A stretch of 64,000 nt of DNA from assembly GCA_014239365.1 (NCBI GenBank), contig JAAZZB010000084.1:21980-85979 (forward strand), given 5' to 3'. Positions 9,648 through 30,675 of the stretch are shown here, piece after piece (position 1 is the stretch's first letter; each line of letters starts with the position of its first letter). The translations under genes and the position numbers were made by a program. Below the pieces are notes generated by a model, which saw nothing but the letters and a program-made list of their open reading frames with translations, searched no databases and was not told the origin of the DNA. This DNA comes from Verrucomicrobiia bacterium. GTDB lineage: Bacteria > Verrucomicrobiota > Verrucomicrobiia > Limisphaerales > UBA1100.

Positions 9648-10514
9648 ATGAAGGTTTACATAAACGGAAAATTTGTGGATGAGGCCAAAGCCTCCGTGTC
9701 AGTTTTTGATCACGGGCTGCTTTATGGCGATGGATTATTCGAAGGCATTCGCGCTTATAACGGCCGCGTGTTTCGCTTGGAAGAACACATCGACCGCCTG
9801 TTTTATTCCGCCAAAGCGATTTTGATGAAGCTGCCGATGAGCCACAAAGCGCTGTGCGCGGCCGTGGTGGAAACGTGCCGCCGCAATAAAGTTCGCGATG
9901 GCTACATCCGGCTGGTGGTCACCCGCGGCACGGGCACGCTGGGGCTCGATCCCAATCGCTGCAGCAATCCGCAGGTCATCATTATCACCGCGAACATCCA
10001 GCTTTATCCCAAGGCGTTCTACGATAAAGGGCTGACGATTGTCACCGTGCCCACCACGCGCAACCACACCAACGCGGTGAACCCGGCCATTAAATCGCTG
10101 AATTACCTCAACAACATTCTCGCCAAAATCGAGGCTACCAACGCCGGTTGCGTCGAAGCCATTATGCTCAACTCACAGGGTTACGTGGCCGAATGCACGG
10201 GTGACAATATTTTTATGCTCAAGGACGGCAAAATGTTTACGCCCTCGCTGGCCTCCGGCGCGCTGCACGGCATCACCCGAACCGTGGTGATGGAACTGGC
10301 TGAAGGATTGGACATCGAAGTCACCCAACCCAATCTCACCCGCTACGATTTATACAACGCCGATGAATGCTTCATTACCGGCACCGCCGCCGAAGTGGTA
10401 CCCGTGGTAAAAATCGACGGCCGAAAAATCGGCACCGGCCGCCCCGGCAAACACACCAAAGCCTTCATGCAAGCCTACCACGCATTGACCAATGCGTCGG
10501 GATCGGCGATTTAA
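9648..10514 (+). CDS. ilvE: branched-chain amino acid aminotransferase (class IV PLP)
   Basis: MKVYINGKFVDEAKASVSVFDHGLLYGDGLFEGIRAYNGRVFRLEEHIDRL; AECTGDNIFML. Confidence 0.9.
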   Translation: MKVYINGKFVDEAKASVSVFDHGLLYGDGLFEGIRAYNGRVFRLEEHIDRLFYSAKAILMKLPMSHKALCAAVVETCRRNKVRDGYIRLVVTRGTGTLGLDPNRCSNPQVIIITANIQLYPKAFYDKGLTIVTVPTTRNHTNAVNPAIKSLNYLNNILAKIEATNAGCVEAIMLNSQGYVAECTGDNIFMLKDGKMFTPSLASGALHGITRTVVMELAEGLDIEVTQPNLTRYDLYNADECFITGTAAEVVPVVKIDGRKIGTGRPGKHTKAFMQAYHALTNASGSAI

Positions 10515-10537
10515 ACAAATAGTGCCGTACAAAAATT

Positions 10538-11875
10538 ATGAAAACAAAAAAATCATTTCTCAATCGGTTTACCAGATCGTTGTCGGCGTTGCTTCTGACG
10601 TTAACGTTTCTGATCCCCACGGCCAAAGCTGAGGTATATGGCTATCGACAAGGGAATTTTTTGGATTCCCTCAAGTATGGAGCCTATTTTGAATCCACCG
10701 ACATTAATATGATGAACTTGGTTTTGGCCGAGATTTTCGGTCAACAATCGGGTGTTATTGATAACATAATGGTAGATGAGTTCTCATTAGAATTCGGTTC
10801 ATCGCCAATGCGAATGCCGGTTCTTATGGCGTCAGTAATGTTGGTGCGTGACTCAAAGGAGGGAGGTGTATGGGTGGAATACGCCCGAACTTGGGAGCAG
10901 CTTGTGGATGGCGAACCACGAGTGCAAACCCTTGCAGTTCACATTTCTGCTCGTGGTAACGTGGATGCGGTGGAAGAGTTGGATTCAGTCTGGAATTATT
11001 TGGAGGCTCATACCGCATCAGAGCGGATTTGGCAGGAAACCCTCGGAGATCCGGATAAAGGCCCCTTGGATTATTATTTTTCAGTGGACCTTGCGAGCCC
11101 TGAAGAATCGATGGGTTTCTGGGATCGATTCTTGTTAGGTGCTTATTTGGGGGATACAGCAGAAATTGATTTAGGTTGGGCAGGAGTAGGCGGTCAAACT
11201 GCTGGCGGATTGGTTCCATACGCAGGCCAAGTGGCAGATGCTCGCGATGCTTCTGTGGCACTGAATACCCTTTGGGAAAGTGGTGGGGCCGATGGGAAAT
11301 TGGACACCACTTTGGCCGTCATTGCAGCATTTCCCGGTGCCGGTGATTTTGTGAAGGGGAGCGTGCGAATGGCCACTAAAGCCAGCAAACACGCCGCCCA
11401 AGAAGTCGGAGGTGCGCTCGCCAAAAAAATTGACGACTTTGTCGGTAAAGCAGGGAAATCAACCCCTCCGAAGGGAAGGTCTCCTAAAAGCCCCAATGGA
11501 AGCAGCAGTGGTGGTGCTAGACAGAATGCTTGGGGTAAAGGCACGGAATTCAATGGAAAAAAAGTATTTCAAAGGAATGATTTAATTGATCTGAAACTAA
11601 TCGATGACCGTGGGCGTACAAATTTGCAACGAATGAAACAAGGGGTGGCTCCTATTGGGCCAGATGGGAACTCAATCAATTTGCATCATCTAACACAAAC
11701 TAATGACAGTCCAATCGTGGAAATGACAGCAACTATGCATCAAAAGAACCATAAGAAATTGCACAAGAACACTGGTCAATCACCGTCCCAAATTGATCGT
11801 CCCAAATTTGATTCTTGGCGTCGTAAGTACTGGAAGGAAAGATCAAGCCAATTTGAGAAGGAGATGACACAATGA
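10538..11875 (+). CDS. secreted polymorphic-toxin-like protein with C-terminal HNH/Endo VII-fold LHH nuclease domain
   Basis: Signal-peptide-like N-terminus; pre-toxin-like DARDASVALNTLWESGGADGKLDTTLAVIAAFPGAGDFVKG; C-terminal INLHHLTQTNDSPIVEMTATMHQKNHKKLHK...DRPKFDSWRRKYWKER. Confidence 0.85.
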   Translation: MKTKKSFLNRFTRSLSALLLTLTFLIPTAKAEVYGYRQGNFLDSLKYGAYFESTDINMMNLVLAEIFGQQSGVIDNIMVDEFSLEFGSSPMRMPVLMASVMLVRDSKEGGVWVEYARTWEQLVDGEPRVQTLAVHISARGNVDAVEELDSVWNYLEAHTASERIWQETLGDPDKGPLDYYFSVDLASPEESMGFWDRFLLGAYLGDTAEIDLGWAGVGGQTAGGLVPYAGQVADARDASVALNTLWESGGADGKLDTTLAVIAAFPGAGDFVKGSVRMATKASKHAAQEVGGALAKKIDDFVGKAGKSTPPKGRSPKSPNGSSSGGARQNAWGKGTEFNGKKVFQRNDLIDLKLIDDRGRTNLQRMKQGVAPIGPDGNSINLHHLTQTNDSPIVEMTATMHQKNHKKLHKNTGQSPSQIDRPKFDSWRRKYWKERSSQFEKEMTQ

Positions 11876-12342
11876 ACGCAAATGATTTTGAACAATACTT
11901 GGAAGAGTTAGCATCCAATCCTTCGGGTGATTTCGAAGGGTTCAAACCCGAGTCATTAGTTGCACTGGCTGAAGATGCATTGTCCTTGCGCTTCTCGCCT
12001 TCATACCGGCAATTTCTGCTGCGGCTGGGTTGTGGTGATATTAACGGATTGGAAATCTATGGGGTCATCCGTGATAGCTTCGTCAATGCCAGCATCCCCA
12101 ATGGCATTTGGTTGACGTTGGAATTGCGGCAGTCCTCGGGGTTGCCGGTGGATATTATTCTTTTTCAGGAAACGGGGGTGGGCGGTTATTACGCAATCGA
12201 CTTGGGGCAGTCCACGGAAGACGGCGAGGCGCCGGTTGTGGAATGGATTCCCGGCGCGGACAATCCGCGACCGTGTCCGATCATTGCCGAAAACTTTGGC
12301 GTGCATCTTCAGGAACAAGTCAAGGCGTACAGCGAGGATTAG
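11872..12342 (+). CDS. SMI1/KNR4 (SUKH)-like protein, predicted cognate immunity protein
   Basis: SUKH-like pattern (LVALAEDALSLRFSPSYRQFLLRLGCGDINGLEIYGV...); ATGA overlap with the toxin gene. Confidence 0.8.
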   Translation: MNANDFEQYLEELASNPSGDFEGFKPESLVALAEDALSLRFSPSYRQFLLRLGCGDINGLEIYGVIRDSFVNASIPNGIWLTLELRQSSGLPVDIILFQETGVGGYYAIDLGQSTEDGEAPVVEWIPGADNPRPCPIIAENFGVHLQEQVKAYSED

Positions 12343-12498
12343 TCGCCTGAAAAAACGCCGAAGCTTTGCCTCGCGCGATATGATTTGATCAATGCTGTGG
12401 GATGGTTCATCATTCGTGCGGCGACGGTTCATCACGCCCCAGCCACCATTCAAGCCTCCCCTGAATCGGGTGGAGAAATTTTGTGATATATTAAACCC

Positions 12499-13062
12499 AT
12501 GCAATGTTGCCAACCAGATTGTGAGAACGAGGCCACGGTTCATTTGACTGAGATTGTGGATGGTCAGATGAAGAAGATTGATCTCTGCGAGGAGTGCGCC
12601 AAGGAACAGGGGGTCACCGATCCGAAAGGATTCGCGCTGGCGGATTTGTTGCTGGGCTTGGGCGCGGCTTCGGAGATGGAGTCGGGCAGTGGGGAATTGG
12701 AATGTCCCTCGTGCGGGTTTGCGCAGGCGGATTTTAAGAAGAGCGGGCGGCTGGGTTGCTCCGATTGTTATGCGACGTTTGCGGAGCCTTTGGAGGGGAT
12801 GCTCAAGCAAATGCACAAGGGCACGCAGCACGTGGGCAAGGTGCCCAAGGCGTTGCGGCAGGAAATGGATTTCACCAAACACCGGCAGCAATTGGAAAAG
12901 CAATTGAAAAAAGCCATCGATACGGAGGACTACGAGCAGGCGGCGCAGGTGCGGGATCAGTTGCGGGGATTGGATGTGCCGCCGGAGGATCCGGTGGAAC
13001 CGCTTGAGCCAAAGGCAAAAGGAGCGAAGAGCGCAAAGAGCACGAAGGGAGGAGAGGCTTAA
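12499..13062 (+). CDS. mcsA: McsA-like protein arginine kinase activator (UvrB/UvrC motif)
   Basis: Paired CxxC motifs (CCQPDCE, CEECAKE, CPSC, CSDC) and a UvrB/C motif LEKQLKKAIDTEDYEQAAQVRDQLRGL; adjacent mcsB. Confidence 0.9.
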   Translation: MQCCQPDCENEATVHLTEIVDGQMKKIDLCEECAKEQGVTDPKGFALADLLLGLGAASEMESGSGELECPSCGFAQADFKKSGRLGCSDCYATFAEPLEGMLKQMHKGTQHVGKVPKALRQEMDFTKHRQQLEKQLKKAIDTEDYEQAAQVRDQLRGLDVPPEDPVEPLEPKAKGAKSAKSTKGGEA

Positions 13063-14135
13063 TGGAATTGCGAAAATTTTTGAGCAGCACCACCGAGTTG
13101 TCCAATTGCGAAGGGCCGCAGGATCACGTGGTGCTGTCGAGCCGCGTGCGGTTGGCGCGTAACGTGACGGGGCGGCCATTCCCGGGGCGCGCGAAGAAGG
13201 CGAGCCGGGTGGAGACGTGCGATTTTATTCAGCCGGCCATCGCAGCGGCCTCGGCGATGCGCGGTGGGTTTTCGGAATCGATGAAGCCATTGCAGGCGCT
13301 GGATAAGCAACTGCTCGTGGAGCGGCATCTTATCAGTCGCGAGCACGCGGCCAAGGGCGCGGGCAGCGGGTTGGTGCTCAGCAAGGACGAAACGTTGAGC
13401 GTAATGATCAATGAAGAGGATCACTTGCGGATGCAGGCGTTGCTGCCTGGGTTACAGGTGAAACAGGTTTGGCAAAAGATGGATCGGTTTGACACGAGTT
13501 TGGAGAAGAAACTGGATTTCGCGTTTGACTCGCAACTCGGTTATCTGACCGCGTGTCCCACCAATCTTGGTACGGGCATTCGCGTGAGCGCGATGTTGCA
13601 TTTGCCGGGCTTGGTGTTGACGGATCAAGTGAATCAAATTGTGCAAGCGGTCACCAAGCTGGGCCATGCGGTGCGCGGGTTGTACGGCGAAGGCACGGAG
13701 GCGCTGGGGCATTTGTTCCAGGTGAGCAACCAAATGACGCTGGGCGAAAGCGAGGCGGACATCATCGAGCGCATTCACAAAGTGGTGTTGCAAGTGATCG
13801 AGCACGAAGAAAACGCGCGGCAAACTTTGCTGCGCACGAAGGCTAAGGAGTTGTACAACCACATCGGGCGCGCGTACGGCACGCTGGCGCACGCGCATAT
13901 TGTGAGCAGCAAAGAGACGATGAACCAGTTGTCGTTGCTGCGGCTGGGCGTGAAGCTGGAGCTGTTCAAAGGGCTGACCACGCCGATGTTGGACGAGCTG
14001 TTTTTGCTCTCGCAACCGGCGCATATGCAGGAATTGGTAGGGGAAAAACTTTCCGGTGAAGAGCGCGACCTCCATCGCGCGGATTTATTGCGCAAACATT
14101 TGGGCAAGGTAAAGGGGCTGAAACTGCCGGAATAA
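13062..14135 (+). CDS. mcsB: protein arginine kinase McsB
   Basis: VVLSSRVRLARNVTGRPFP; phosphagen-kinase-like LGYLTACPTNLGTGIRVSAMLHLPGL. Confidence 0.93.
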   Translation: MELRKFLSSTTELSNCEGPQDHVVLSSRVRLARNVTGRPFPGRAKKASRVETCDFIQPAIAAASAMRGGFSESMKPLQALDKQLLVERHLISREHAAKGAGSGLVLSKDETLSVMINEEDHLRMQALLPGLQVKQVWQKMDRFDTSLEKKLDFAFDSQLGYLTACPTNLGTGIRVSAMLHLPGLVLTDQVNQIVQAVTKLGHAVRGLYGEGTEALGHLFQVSNQMTLGESEADIIERIHKVVLQVIEHEENARQTLLRTKAKELYNHIGRAYGTLAHAHIVSSKETMNQLSLLRLGVKLELFKGLTTPMLDELFLLSQPAHMQELVGEKLSGEERDLHRADLLRKHLGKVKGLKLPE

Positions 14136-14249
14136 GCCGTCAAATGGCTAATGACACGATTGAGCCGTAAAAAAGGGCTCATTTGGGCATAAGTTGGCAT
14201 CAGGAATGCTCGACAAAATAGGCGAAAACAGCCAAGATTTATCAAGAAA

Positions 14250-16763
14250 ATGAGTGACGAAGGAATGAGTAATTTTACGCCACGCGCCCAACAGGTGCTG
14301 GCATTGGCGCGCAAGGAAGCGGATCGATTCAACCACAACTTTGTGGGCACCGAGCATTTGTTGCTGGGGCTCATCAAGCTCGGCCAAGGCGTGGCGGTTA
14401 ACGTTTTGCAAAAGATGGGGCTGGACCTCGAGACCGTGCGGTTGGAAGTCGAGAAACAAGTCGGCACCGGGCCGGATCAAAAACAGGTCGGCAACATTCC
14501 GTACACGCCGCGCGTGAAAAAAGTCCTCAACCTCGCCTCCAAAGAAGCCAAGCAACTGCAACACACGTACGTGGGCACGGAGCACATTTTGCTCGGTCTC
14601 CTGCGCGAAGGCGAAGGCGTGGCGGCGCGCGTGCTCAAGAATCTCGACATCGACATCGAGCAAACACGTCAGGAAATTTTGAAGGAACTCGATCCGAACT
14701 TCGCAATGGGCGAGGACGACATGGACGAGGAAGGCGAAACTGCCCCAACCAAGGGCGGTGGAAAAAAAGGCAACAAGACGCCAGCGCTGCGCGCCTTTGG
14801 CCGCGACCTCACGGAGATCGCCCGCAAAGGCGAGATGGATCCGGTGATTGGCCGCGAAGACGAAATCGAACGCGTCATTCAAATTCTCTGCCGCCGCACG
14901 AAGAACAATCCAGTGTTGCTCGGTGAAGCGGGCGTGGGCAAAACCGCCATCGTCGAAGGCCTCGCGCAGGAAGTGGTGAAAGGCAACGTGCCGGAACTGT
15001 TGCGCGATCGCCGCGTCGTGACGTTAGATCTCGCGCTGATGGTGGCCGGCACCAAGTACCGCGGGCAATTCGAGGAACGCATCAAAGCGGTGATGGACGA
15101 AATTCGCCGCGCGAAGAATGTCATTTTATTCATCGACGAGCTGCACACCATCGTGGGCGCTGGTTCCGCCGAAGGCACGATGGATGCCAGCAACATCATC
15201 AAGCCCGCATTGAGCCGCGGCGAGTTGCAATGCGTGGGTGCCACCACGCTTACCGAGTATCGCAAGTACATCGAGAAAGACGCCGCGTTGGAACGCCGTT
15301 TCCAAAATGTAAAAGTGGAGGCGCCATCCATTGAGGAAGCCATCGAAATTCTCAAGGGATTGCGGATCAAATACGAGGAGCATCACAAAGCCGAGATCAC
15401 CGATGAAGCGGTGGAGGCGTCCGTCAAACTTTCCGATCGCTACATCACCTCACGTTATTTGCCGGATAAAGCCATTGATGTGATGGACGAAGCCGGTTCG
15501 CGCGCGCGCATCCAGGCGATGACGCGGCCGCCGGAAATCAAGGAACTTGAGGCTGCCATTGACGAGATCAAAACCCGCAAGGAAACGGCCATTAAAGAGC
15601 AGGATTTTGAAGGCGCAGCCTCGATGCGCGACGAAGAAAAGCACGCCAAGGAAAACCTCGAAAACACGATGGCCGAATGGAAAGCCGCCAGCGAGGAAAC
15701 TAAGGTGGTCATTTCTGATGAGGACATCATGCACGTCATTTCCAAGTGGACCGGCATCCCGCTGCAACGCATGGAGAAAGACGAAATCAAAAAGCTTCTC
15801 AGCATGGAAAAGGAGCTGGAGAAAGTGGTCATCGGCCAATCCGCCGCAGTCACTTCACTCAGCAAAGCCCTGCGCCGCTCGCGGGCTGATCTCAAGGATC
15901 CTGTGCGTCCGATCGGGGCCTTTGCCCTGATGGGCCCCACCGGCGTGGGCAAAACGCTTTTAGCCAAGACCATCGCCGAACAATTGTTTGGCGATTCCAA
16001 GGCGCTTATTCAAATTGATATGAGCGAGTATATGGAAAAATTTGCCAGCTCGCGCCTTATTGGTTCGCCTCCCGGCTATGTTGGTTTCGAGGAAGGCGGC
16101 CAGTTGACTGAGCAAGTGCGGCGCAGGCCGTACTCGGTGGTGCTTTTTGATGAAATCGAAAAGGCCCATCCGGATGTGATGAATATGCTCCTTCAAATTT
16201 TGGAGGAAGGCAAACTCACCGATAGTCAGGGCCGCACGGTTGATTTTCGGAATACCATTATTTTGCTTACATCCAATGTGGGCTCCGAGAGCGCCAAGAA
16301 GAGTACGGCCATCGGATTCAATAATTCGGGTAATGAAGTCGATTACGAAAAAATGCGTGAGCTGATTATGGACGAAGCTAAAAAGGCATTCCGTCCGGAA
16401 TTCTTAAACCGGCTGGACGATGTAATTGTGTTCCACTCATTGGTGAAAAAAGATCTCAGCGAAATTCTGGACCTCGAACTCAACAAAGTTACCGAACGCC
16501 TTAAGGAAAAAGAAATCGATCTCGTGCTCGACAAAAAAGCGCACGACTTGCTGGTTGAAAAGGGGTACGACCCTGAGTACGGCGCGCGGCCCATGCGGCG
16601 CGCGGTGGAGCGCTTCCTTGAGGATCCGCTGGCTGAGGAAATTTTGCGCGGAACTCTAGTTGGGGGCGATCCCATTAAAGTTTCCACCAAGAACGATAAG
16701 TTGACGTTCAAACAAAAAGCTTCCACCGAAACCGAAGAGAAAACGGTTTCCGCCGGCGACTAA
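14250..16763 (+). CDS. clpC: ClpC-type AAA+ chaperone
   Basis: N-terminal Clp repeats; [18 protein letters not shown]-like linker; second Walker [56 protein letters not shown]. Confidence 0.96.
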
Positions 16764-26580: not shown

Positions 26581-27615
26581 ATGAAGTTGTGGAAACACAT
26601 TCAATGGTTGAGCTTGGCCGCGTTGATGGCGGGGTTGACGGCTTGCACGACTGTTCCGGAGACCGGCCGCTCGCAGCTCAATCTGATTTCCCCCTCGATG
26701 GAGCGGGGGATGGGGCGCGATGCGTTTATCAATTTGAAAGGAAGCGCGTCGCTGAGCAGCGACCAAAACGCCACCGCGATTTTGCAACGCGTGGGCAGTC
26801 GCATCGCCGCCGTGGCGGATTTGCCCAAGGCGCAGTGGGAGTTTGTGCTGTTCGAGAACAGCCAAGCCAACGCGTTTTGTTTGCCCGGCGGTAAGGTGGG
26901 CGTGTACACGGGTATGTTGCAAATCACCCAAACCGAAGCCGGCCTCGCCACGGTGTTGGCGCACGAAGTGGCACACGCGGTGGCGCATCACGGGGCCGAA
27001 CGCATCAGCCGCGTGCTTGTGGTGAATGGCGTGGGGATGGCGTTGATTTCGCAATTCACCAAAATGGATGCCGCCAGTAAAAATGCGTTGATGCTCGCGT
27101 ACGGCCTCGGCACCACGCTCGGCACCGAGCTGCCGCACAGTCGGTTGCAGGAAAGTGAGGCCGACCGCATCGGGCTGATTTATATGGCGCGGGCGGGGTA
27201 CGATCCGGCGGAGGCGATTAAGTTTTGGGAACGCTTCGCCGAATATAACCGCGCCCAAGGCGGCAGCAGCACGCCGTGGTTTCTGCGCACTCATCCACTG
27301 GATGAACAACGCATCGAAGATCTCAAACGCCTCCTGCCGGAAGCCCAACTCCAATACCGTCCGCGAGGAAAAGAAGATCCGCCCACCCCCACGCCAATTT
27401 TGCCAAAAGAAATTTCCAAAACCATCACCCTCATCAACCCCAAAACCGGCGCGCGCAAAGTCATCGAGTGGAAACCGGGAATGACCATTTACACCGCCCG
27501 CCGCAAAGCCGGCATTCGCCCCACCGGCCCGCCCCAACTCACCCGCGCCGGAAAACTCCGCCCCGCCAAACCCGCCACCACATTAAAAGCCGGCGACGTA
27601 GTGCGCTGGAAATAA
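26581..27615 (+). CDS. M48 family metalloprotease, putative lipoprotein
   Basis: HEVAHAVAHHGAE (HExxH); QESEADRIGLIYMARAGYDP; lipobox-like AGLTACTT. Confidence 0.92.
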   Translation: MKLWKHIQWLSLAALMAGLTACTTVPETGRSQLNLISPSMERGMGRDAFINLKGSASLSSDQNATAILQRVGSRIAAVADLPKAQWEFVLFENSQANAFCLPGGKVGVYTGMLQITQTEAGLATVLAHEVAHAVAHHGAERISRVLVVNGVGMALISQFTKMDAASKNALMLAYGLGTTLGTELPHSRLQESEADRIGLIYMARAGYDPAEAIKFWERFAEYNRAQGGSSTPWFLRTHPLDEQRIEDLKRLLPEAQLQYRPRGKEDPPTPTPILPKEISKTITLINPKTGARKVIEWKPGMTIYTARRKAGIRPTGPPQLTRAGKLRPAKPATTLKAGDVVRWK

Positions 27616-27750
27616 ATTTAGCGTCGGCTTACGGCTCCCGTTCAACAGGGGTCATTCTGTGAATAACAATTTTTTCTCTCGTTTGACTTTGGCTCAACAC
27701 CTAACTAATTTCAGTTAGTTTATCGAAGCAATACGAACCGTATATTTTCA

Positions 27751-29130
27751 ATGAAACCCATTTATATATTTTTCTGTGTAATCGGAGTTTTGATCGGGGT
27801 TGCCGGTTCACAGATGTTTTCCGGCCCCGCAAACCGCGTTGAAACATCGTCAGTTCGAACCGCCAAAGAGCGAAGGGAGCACCTGCGTGTGGAGCGTCAA
27901 CAACGGGCGGAGCAACGGCAATTGGATGCAGTTTTGTTTCCTCCCGCTCCAATGCTGTCAACGACCGAGCCCGGGGAAGTGGCAGTAGAGATAATTGAAA
28001 AACTGAGGGTGCTGAAAAATGATGATTCGAGAATTTTTCAGCGTCGCATCATCCATTATTTTGAAAGCCTTTTGGAATTAGGGCCGGCATCGGTGCCGGC
28101 AATGATTGCTTTTTTGAATGAAGTGAATGATGTGATCTTTTTTGATCGTGAGCATTACAAACAAATTTCAATTGTCGGTACGTTTCAAATCCATCCCTCC
28201 TCTGGGCTGGTGGGTCTTTATGGTTTGAAGGGCGAGAAGCCGGATCCAATTTATTATCGTTCCAATAAGCGGCTGCCCAGTTTGAAGGGGATTGTTCCTT
28301 GGGCTTTTGTGCCCAAAAGTATGCGGCTGGGCATTGTTGAAACATTGGTAATGATGGGTGGGGATGAAGCGCGCGCCGGATTGGTAGTAGCCTTGAACAC
28401 CACGCGCGATGGGTTTGAGGTTGCGATGCTGGACGTGTGTTTTAGAATGATGGAAACCCCAAACCAAAAAGAACTGGTAACAAATGTGATCCATAAAATT
28501 CTGAATGAATTTCCAGATTATCCGCAAACAAATTTTGAACAAAGTTCGCGTGAATACCTGTTCACGTTGTTGGTGAAATATAATGACCACCGGTATGTGC
28601 CGGTCGCAAAGGACAGAATTGTGGATGAAGCCACCGGACGGATGAATCCAAACTCTGTGGAATATTTAATTTCAACACTCGGTCCGGATGCGTTGACAAT
28701 TCTGGGGCCGTATTACTTCGGTAACCTTCTTTCAAACGAATGGGATCGGCGTGGGTTAAGGAATAAAATGCTTCCATTTTTGGGTCATCACCCAATCGCT
28801 GCGGATGTCTTTCGCCGTGCGATGGGGGAGGTTGGGAAGGGTGAATCTAAATTGGAAAAGGCAGATTTTCTGGCAACGTTGTGGTCATCACGGGAATTGC
28901 GAGCAGTCCGAAACGCTGATTACAAGCAAGTGATGAAGAATCGGATTAAAATATACAGCGAATTAAAACGATTCCCACCGGCTGCATATCATGAATTAGT
29001 GGATTCCTCGTTTAACACGACAATTTCCAAGATGCAAAAAGAAATGCGCGATATTCTTGATCGAGAATTTTTTGTTACCTCCGGGGGCGTAGTGTTGCTT
29101 ATAGAAGAAACGCGAACGGAAACCCAATGA
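27751..29130 (+). CDS. hypothetical exported/membrane-anchored protein
   Basis: 459-aa ORF with N-terminal hydrophobic segment; family not recognised. Confidence 0.7.
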   Translation: MKPIYIFFCVIGVLIGVAGSQMFSGPANRVETSSVRTAKERREHLRVERQQRAEQRQLDAVLFPPAPMLSTTEPGEVAVEIIEKLRVLKNDDSRIFQRRIIHYFESLLELGPASVPAMIAFLNEVNDVIFFDREHYKQISIVGTFQIHPSSGLVGLYGLKGEKPDPIYYRSNKRLPSLKGIVPWAFVPKSMRLGIVETLVMMGGDEARAGLVVALNTTRDGFEVAMLDVCFRMMETPNQKELVTNVIHKILNEFPDYPQTNFEQSSREYLFTLLVKYNDHRYVPVAKDRIVDEATGRMNPNSVEYLISTLGPDALTILGPYYFGNLLSNEWDRRGLRNKMLPFLGHHPIAADVFRRAMGEVGKGESKLEKADFLATLWSSRELRAVRNADYKQVMKNRIKIYSELKRFPPAAYHELVDSSFNTTISKMQKEMRDILDREFFVTSGGVVLLIEETRTETQ

Positions 29131-29274
29131 AACCCATTTATATATTTTTCTGTCTGATCGGAGTTTGATCAGGGTTGCCGGTTCACAGATTTTTTCTGAT
29201 CCTACAATCCGCGTGGATGAAACGCCAAACCCGCCACCACATCAAAAGTCGGCGACGTAGTGCGCTGGAAATAG
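29127..29274 (+). pseudogene. chimeric duplication scar: 5' end of the 27751 gene fused to the 3' end of the M48 gene
   Basis: 29127-29219 resembles 27751-27845; 29223-29274 matches 27564-27615 with 3 mismatches over 52 nt by eye. Confidence 0.9.
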
Positions 29275-29311
29275 TGTGGGGCTTGTTTCAATCACTTCTT
29301 TAAACTAGCCT

Positions 29312-30675
29312 TTGGCTATGTCCAGCACTGGCCCTCAGGATGCGCCGACTCATTGGCGCGGGATTCTTCGGCATCTTGGCCCGGGGCTAATTATCACGGC
29401 TTGTATCGTGGGCTCGGGGGAGTTGATTGCCACGCCGATGGTGGGGGCGGAGTATGGGTTTAGTTTGCTGTGGTTTATCATCGGCGGCTGTATGATCAAG
29501 GTGCTGGTGCAGGTGGAGCTGGGGCGGTTTGCAATTTCAAAGGGGATGACGACGCTGGAGGCGATGAACACGATTCCGGGGCCGCGGCTGGTGGTGTCTT
29601 GGTTGGTGTGGTGTTGGCTGTTTATGTTTGTGGGGATTTTGTTTCAGCTCGGCGGCATTGTGGGCGGGGTGGGGAAGGTGGTGGCGGAGTTGGGATGGTT
29701 CGAGGAATTTGGGGGCACGGGAATTTTTACGTTGGATCGGCTGATCGCGCTGGCAGTGTCGGCGGCGACGGTGGCGATTTTGGCTTCGGGCAAGTACAAA
29801 CCGGTGGAGGTGTTTTCGACGATCGTGGTGGTGTTGTTTATGGTGGCGACGTTGTTTGCGTTGGGGAGTTTGCAATGGTCGCCGGAGATGGCGGCGCATT
29901 CGATTTCGTGGAGCGATCTTCGTGAGGGATTTCAGTTTCGTTTGCCGGGGGATTTTTCCACGGCGTTTGCGGCGTTCGGCACATCGGCGTGGGGGCGTCG
30001 GAGTTGATTTATTATCCATATTGGTGTTTGGAAAAAGGCTACGCGCGCAATGTCGGCACGCCGAATCCCACGAACGTTTGGTACAAGCGCACGCAGGGTT
30101 GGCTGCGGGTGATGCGGATCGATGCGTGCGTGTCGATGGTGATTTACACGGGGGCGACGGTGGCGTTTTTTCTGCTCGGCGCGGCGCTGCTGCACGGCGC
30201 TTCGGGGGTGAGCAATGACACGATGATCGCGGATCTCTCCAAAATGTACGCGCCACTCGGCAAGGCGGGGTTGACGGTTTTTCTGCTGGGCGCGTTTGTG
30301 GTTTTGTTTTCCACAATGGTGACGGCGTCGGCTTCGAACGCGCGATTGTTGGCGGATGGGTTGGTGCTGTTTCAACTCAAGAAACCGCGTAGCGAAAAGG
30401 AGCGCACGAAGTTGCTGAGCCAATGTTGCATCGCAGTGCCGATGGTGTGCGCGGGGGTGTATTTATTTGTGGGCGCGCCGGTGTCGTTAGTGCTGGTGGG
30501 CGGCGTGGCGCAGGCGTTGATGCTACCATTCCTCGCGGGCGCGGCGTTGTATTTCCGCTATAAACAAACGGACAAACCGCTGCAACCGGGCAAGGTGTGG
30601 ACGGCGTTGCTGTGGGTTTCGGCCCTCGCGATGGCGGCAGTGGGGTTGTTTCAGTTTTATCAAAAGTTGACTTAG
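29312..30675 (+). pseudogene. Nramp-family divalent metal transporter, frameshifted
   Basis: 29312..30007 and 29989..30675 are two halves; adding one base at about 29981 restores AAFGTIGVGASELIYYPYW. Confidence 0.88.

What the first reader, a model, noticed from the sequence alone, without database searches (positions are those of the whole stretch)
10538..12342. Secreted LHH-nuclease toxin with overlapping SUKH-like immunity gene
Seen: an ORF with a signal-peptide-like N-terminus and a C-terminal LHH...HxKNHKKLH...DRxKFDxWRRKYWKER pattern, followed by a SMI1/KNR4-like ORF sharing an ATGA stop/start. Known: LHH is an HNH/Endo VII-fold toxin domain and SUKH proteins are common immunity proteins in polymorphic toxin systems. 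Inference: this is a compact toxin-immunity pair with no obvious T6SS, Rhs or CDI carrier. Its roughly 330-aa N-terminal half, which may define the export route, looks undescribed to me.
Basis: partly seen in the sequence, partly recalled or inferred. Interest (0 to 1): 0.75.

Follow-up and report, generated by a model that had tools for sequence, protein, structure and literature searches.

The report
Secreted nuclease toxin with immunity gene
A bacterium has picked up, between two housekeeping genes, a two-gene cassette for an exported DNA- or RNA-cutting toxin and the partner that protects its owner; both working parts belong to well-known families, and only the middle of the toxin, which must get it into rivals, is unfamiliar.

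Summary
The finding is real. The 445-aa ORF (10538-11875, +) has a Sec-type signal peptide and a C-terminal LHH nuclease domain (Pfam LHH, 93.5 bits, cut-off 23.3) with every residue listed for Tox-LHH. The 156-aa ORF sharing ATGA with it (11872-12342) is a SUKH immunity protein (SUKH_5, 60.3 bits, cut-off 27). The tip+SUKH cassette recurs on Rhs, LXG/T7SS, PAAR-like T6SS and other carriers; Tox-LHH with Imm-SUKH was catalogued in 2012. This is a new member of a known kind: a Sec-exported polymorphic toxin, closest in layout to Neisseria MafB/MafI. I add three points. (1) The pair is a ~1.97-kb low-GC insertion between a class IV aminotransferase gene and mcsA; all 11 relatives that could be compared have nothing there. 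(2) The 'undescribed N-terminal half' is two things: residues 32-193, with no relative found in several hundred related genomes and no confident fold, and residues ~194-310, a pre-toxin module shared with other polymorphic toxins, including a 429-aa signal-peptide protein of the same genus with another tip. (3) The genome has no detectable T6SS sheath or RHS repeats but has secretins. How the toxin enters target cells is unknown.

The parts
10538..10630 (+). Sec-type signal peptide, residues 1-31, predicted cleavage TAKA|E
   Evidence: read from the sequence; hydropathy. No trained signal-peptide predictor was available
10631..11116 (+). N-terminal domain, residues 32-193, alpha/beta by low-confidence prediction, no relatives found
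   Evidence: matches begin only at residue ~183; structure pLDDT 44
11117..11461 (+). pre-toxin module, residues 194-308, GGLVPYAGQVADARD...AAFPGAGDFVKG
   Evidence: shared with L004 (same genus), L005 and L009
11531..11875 (+). LHH (HNH/Endo VII) nuclease tip, residues 332-445; N-LHH...E...H...H...W motif
   Evidence: Pfam PF14411 93.5 bits; alignment A2
11872..12342 (+). SUKH-superfamily immunity protein, 156 aa
   Evidence: PF14567/PF14568/PF09346; similar to Lin2918 2icg and YobK 2prv
10506..12474 (.). inserted segment, absent from 11 relatives that have the aminotransferase gene followed directly by mcsA
12433..12473 (+). possible decayed copy of the aminotransferase gene 3' end at the right border of the insert (tentative)
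   Evidence: imperfect 28-nt repeat, 75%, collinear with 10452-10479 (shuffle p 0 to 0.02 where this repeat is the best match, but it is not the best match against every congener)

Best explanation
This is a horizontally acquired polymorphic toxin-immunity pair. The toxin is exported by Sec through its cleaved signal peptide, reaches the outside by a route not identified here, and its C-terminal LHH metal-dependent nuclease domain is delivered into neighbouring, probably closely related, cells, where it cuts nucleic acid (DNA more likely than RNA). The SUKH protein, made from the overlapping downstream gene and kept in the cytoplasm (it has no signal peptide), binds the LHH domain and protects the producer and its immune siblings. 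Shown by sequence: domains, catalytic motif, gene overlap, insertion, cassette recurrence on other carriers. Inferred: export, entry, nuclease activity, neutralisation.
For: LHH and SUKH profile hits; all residues named for Tox-LHH (N, LHH, E, H, H, W; PMC3482391) present; the tip is immediately followed by an SMI1/KNR4 gene on the other carriers examined: Bacillus plasmids, Streptomyces, T6SS DUF4150 effector beside VgrG, Rhs of the same class, Chlamydiales and Woeseiaceae MAGs with SUKH 44-45% identical to this one. In B. subtilis, induction of the LXG toxin YobL, whose operon partner YobK is a SUKH-type relative of this immunity protein, causes loss of chromosomal DNA, and antitoxin expression rescues the competition defect of deletion mutants (PMC8321402). 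Clean insertion absent in 11 relatives with GC 40% at the tip against 56% for the window. Same-genus L004 carries signal peptide + same module + a different tip + an overlapping small downstream gene.
Against: No activity, export or immunity has been measured. No relative of the N-terminal domain was found, so the delivery step is unsupported. Both structure predictions were of low confidence.
Confidence: 0.86

Rival explanations
1. An intracellular toxin-antitoxin or phage-defence module in which the nuclease acts inside its own cell after SUKH inhibition is lifted.
For: Two-gene overlap and horizontal spread are also typical of toxin-antitoxin modules; SP-beta-type phages carry LHH proteins.
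Against: Signal peptide, pre-toxin module and cassette swapping onto secreted carriers; no PADLOC hit.
Confidence: 0.07
2. A secreted effector aimed at eukaryotes (protists) rather than bacteria, the SUKH protein guarding only against leakage.
For: Polymorphic toxins and host-directed effectors share toxin domains and secretory pathways including T2SS (PMC3482391).
Against: A cognate immunity gene is the mark of inter-bacterial toxins; some host-directed effectors are told apart only by its absence (same paper).
Confidence: 0.04
3. A decaying or orphan insertion whose carrier part is no longer functional.
For: N-terminal domain has no relatives found; the pair is present in one genome of its genus only.
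Against: Both frames are open, catalytic residues are intact, the gene overlap is kept.
Confidence: 0.03

Closest known systems
Tox-LHH / Imm-SUKH polymorphic toxin systems (Zhang et al. 2012, PMC3482391)
   Same: Toxin domain, motif residues, SUKH immunity partner, and T2SS/Sec among the listed export routes.
   Different: The N-terminal domain 32-193 matches no carrier domain named there that Pfam holds (MAFB-N, APD1, APD2, MicroscillaN and others are listed in the paper).
YobL/YobK and other LXG toxin pairs of Bacillus subtilis (T7SS; PMC8321402)
   Same: LXG toxins of Bacillus carry LHH tips next to SMI1/KNR4 genes; YobK structure 2prv is a sequence match to this immunity protein. That YobL itself bears the LHH tip is my recollection, consistent with the B. 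subtilis control hit.
   Different: LXG domain and T7SS there; here a Sec signal peptide and an unrelated N-terminus.
MafB/MafI of Neisseria (PMC4287609)
   Same: Layout: signal peptide, conserved N-terminal domain, swappable C-terminal toxin, downstream immunity gene; some MafI have SMI1 domains.
   Different: No DUF1020/PF06255 hit; no genomic island with cassettes, single locus.
L004 protein of a same-genus genome (G461)
   Same: Signal peptide, pre-toxin module, overlapping small downstream ORF, similar length.
   Different: Different N-terminal domain, different tip (no Pfam hit), partner without Pfam hit.
L041, Clostridia MAG
   Same: Signal-peptide-like start, about 390 aa, LHH-type tip, followed by a SUKH-like ORF.
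   Different: No similarity outside the tip.

Membership tests
Tox-LHH nuclease (PF14411) | profile match over curated cut-off | tested here: met
   93.5 bits vs 23.3
Tox-LHH nuclease (PF14411) | N, LHH, E, H, H, W residues | tested here: met
   INLHH, E, MHQ, KLH, YW present; H52, H53, E64, H70, W101 of the tip invariant in 8 sequences
Tox-LHH nuclease (PF14411) | nuclease activity | not testable with these tools
   needs expression
SUKH superfamily immunity protein | profile match over curated cut-off | tested here: met
   SUKH_5 60.3 vs 27; SUKH_6 55 vs 27; SMI1_KNR4 40.4 vs 25.4
SUKH superfamily immunity protein | neutralises adjacent toxin | not testable with these tools
   needs co-expression
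Polymorphic toxin system | C-terminal tip on swappable carriers, with adjacent immunity gene | tested here: met
   same tip on LXG, PAAR-like, Rhs carriers; same module with another tip in L004
Sec/T2SS-exported polymorphic toxin | signal peptide, no other secretion signature | tested here: met
   signal peptide by inspection and hydropathy only; no LXG, PAAR, TPS or RHS domain
Sec/T2SS-exported polymorphic toxin | actual export | not testable with these tools
   needs fractionation or a PhoA fusion
MafB | DUF1020 (PF06255) N-terminal domain | tested here: not met
   absent from Pfam scan at E up to 1
T6SS effector | T6SS apparatus in genome | tested here: not met
   no VipB in the 93.6% complete genome
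Rhs toxin | RHS repeats | tested here: not met
   none in protein or genome

The most novel reading that the evidence does not exclude
Residues 32-193 are a new delivery domain that lets a small Sec-exported toxin cross the envelope of other diderm cells without a T5SS, T6SS, T7SS or Rhs shell.
Probability: 0.12. Interest if true: 0.55.

Novelty: new member of a known kind. Interest (0 to 1): 0.3.

Why it matters
It extends a known nuclease/immunity pairing to a compact Sec-exported carrier in a lineage where such pairs are rare (LHH over cut-off in 4 of 384 genomes of the class), with a clear empty site in close relatives. The open question it sharpens is general: how do small signal-peptide-only polymorphic toxins get into target cells?

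Tried and rejected
Structure of the N-terminal region alone (pLDDT 44) and of the full toxin with four aligned sequences (pLDDT 38): too poor for a fold search, so none was run. Scan of species genomes with the full protein found nothing; an LHH-tip alignment was too variable to search with; the single tip found three loci. A sharp recombination boundary at the insert, suggested by 90% versus 97% identity on the two sides in one congener, was rejected: identity swings by similar amounts all along the window. L003 and L006 module hits lie in frames that overlap ordinary genes and were dismissed; the 14-residue viral hit L045 likewise. PDB profile search with the module: nothing. No promoter-like site above chance. 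The L004 tip and its partner have no match in plasmid records.

Full report
Observation. The first has PF14411 LHH at residues 361-436 (E=9.3e-27); the second matches three SUKH families over cut-off and two solved SUKH-type structures, Lin2918 (2icg, 1.1e-11) and YobK (2prv, 1e-4). The N-terminus reads as a Sec signal peptide ending TAKA|E; it is the only strongly hydrophobic 19-residue stretch. No trained predictor was available.

Anatomy of the toxin. Four pieces: signal peptide (1-31); an orphan domain (32-193); a pre-toxin module (about 194-310); the nuclease tip (about 330-445). The module, with the signature GLVPxxGQxxDxxD...PGxGDxxKG, is found in a 429-aa signal-peptide protein of the same genus (L004), in a 719-aa protein of the order (L005), and together with an LHH tip in an Rhs-like end of the class (L009; residues 222-437, 31% identity). 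A profile of it adds one distant match: L033, a 273-aa protein with a signal-like start, a bare Rhs core end and another tip. The orphan domain has no match in 388 genomes of the phylum, 196 of the order, 20 of the family (overlapping samples), nor in plasmid records.

The tip as a cassette. tblastn against plasmids finds essentially only the last ~115 residues (one match reaches back to residue 249), on LXG toxins of Bacillus, plasmid proteins of Listeria, a DUF4150 (PAAR-like) protein next to VgrG, a hemagglutinin-repeat protein of Rhizobium, and a large Streptomyces protein. In the four annotated cases opened, the next gene is SMI1/KNR4. In species genomes the best relatives are an Rhs-type protein of a Woeseiaceae MAG and a Chlamydiales MAG protein, with SUKH partners 45% and 44% identical to this one, and a Clostridia MAG whose ~390-aa protein also begins with a signal-like sequence. 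An alignment of eight tips keeps the HH pair, E, H, YW and R.

Insertion. mcsA was used to fetch the region in relatives. In four congeners, six other family members and one member of the order, the class IV aminotransferase gene is followed at once by mcsA. The window holds ~1.97 kb more (about 10506-12474), with GC 40% at the tip and 47% in the N-terminal part against 56% for the window. The congeners end the aminotransferase gene in GSEIL*; the window ends it in GSAI* and keeps the congeners' AAATTTTGTGATATATTAA on the far side of the insert, so the insertion lies at the gene's 3' end and supplied a new stop. A weak collinear copy of the gene's 3' end at the right border may be a relic of the old end; I hold this loosely. 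Loss from all the relatives instead of gain here is possible but needs more events.

Secretion context. No T6SS sheath and no RHS repeats were found in the 93.6% complete genome; three secretins over cut-off are present, so a T2SS or a type IV pilus is possible. No other SUKH_5 gene was found in this genome or in four congeners, and LHH is rare in the class (4 of 384 genomes over cut-off).

Mechanism. Most likely an inter-bacterial toxin: Sec export, unknown outer-membrane step, unknown entry, nuclease attack; cytoplasmic SUKH immunity. YobL, an LXG toxin of B. subtilis, removed chromosomal DNA when induced in B. subtilis although its C-terminal domain had been reported as an RNase in E. coli (PMC8321402), so the substrate is left open with DNA favoured.

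Known or new. Zhang et al. 2012 (PMC3482391) list Tox-LHH with exactly these residues, Imm-SUKH as its partner and T2SS among its routes. MafB/MafI (PMC4287609) has the same layout with another N-terminal domain. The pair is a new member of a known kind. What is not accounted for is the 162-residue N-terminal domain and the entry step.

Noticed in passing
L027:9083-10700 (-) (same-genus genome G461): A second compact signal-peptide toxin-like gene (429 aa, same pre-toxin module, unrecognised tip) with an overlapping 123-aa partner; neither has Pfam or plasmid matches, so both may be new families.
   Followed up: partly
L033:975-1796 (-): 273-aa protein: signal-like start joined directly to a bare Rhs core end, then pre-toxin module and tip; followed by an overlapping 145-aa ORF. 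A compact Sec version of an Rhs toxin.
   Followed up: no
27600-30500: Stretch absent or poorly conserved in the closest congener, including a 459-aa ORF at 27751-29130 without any Pfam hit.
   Followed up: partly
L005:523-2682 (+): 719-aa protein with the pre-toxin module and an HNH-like C-terminus (DAHHIFE) but no Pfam hit.
   Followed up: no
12499-16763: mcsA-like (UVR motif), mcsB-like (ATP:guanido phosphotransferase) and clpC-like genes in a row, an arrangement I know from Firmicutes.
   Followed up: no
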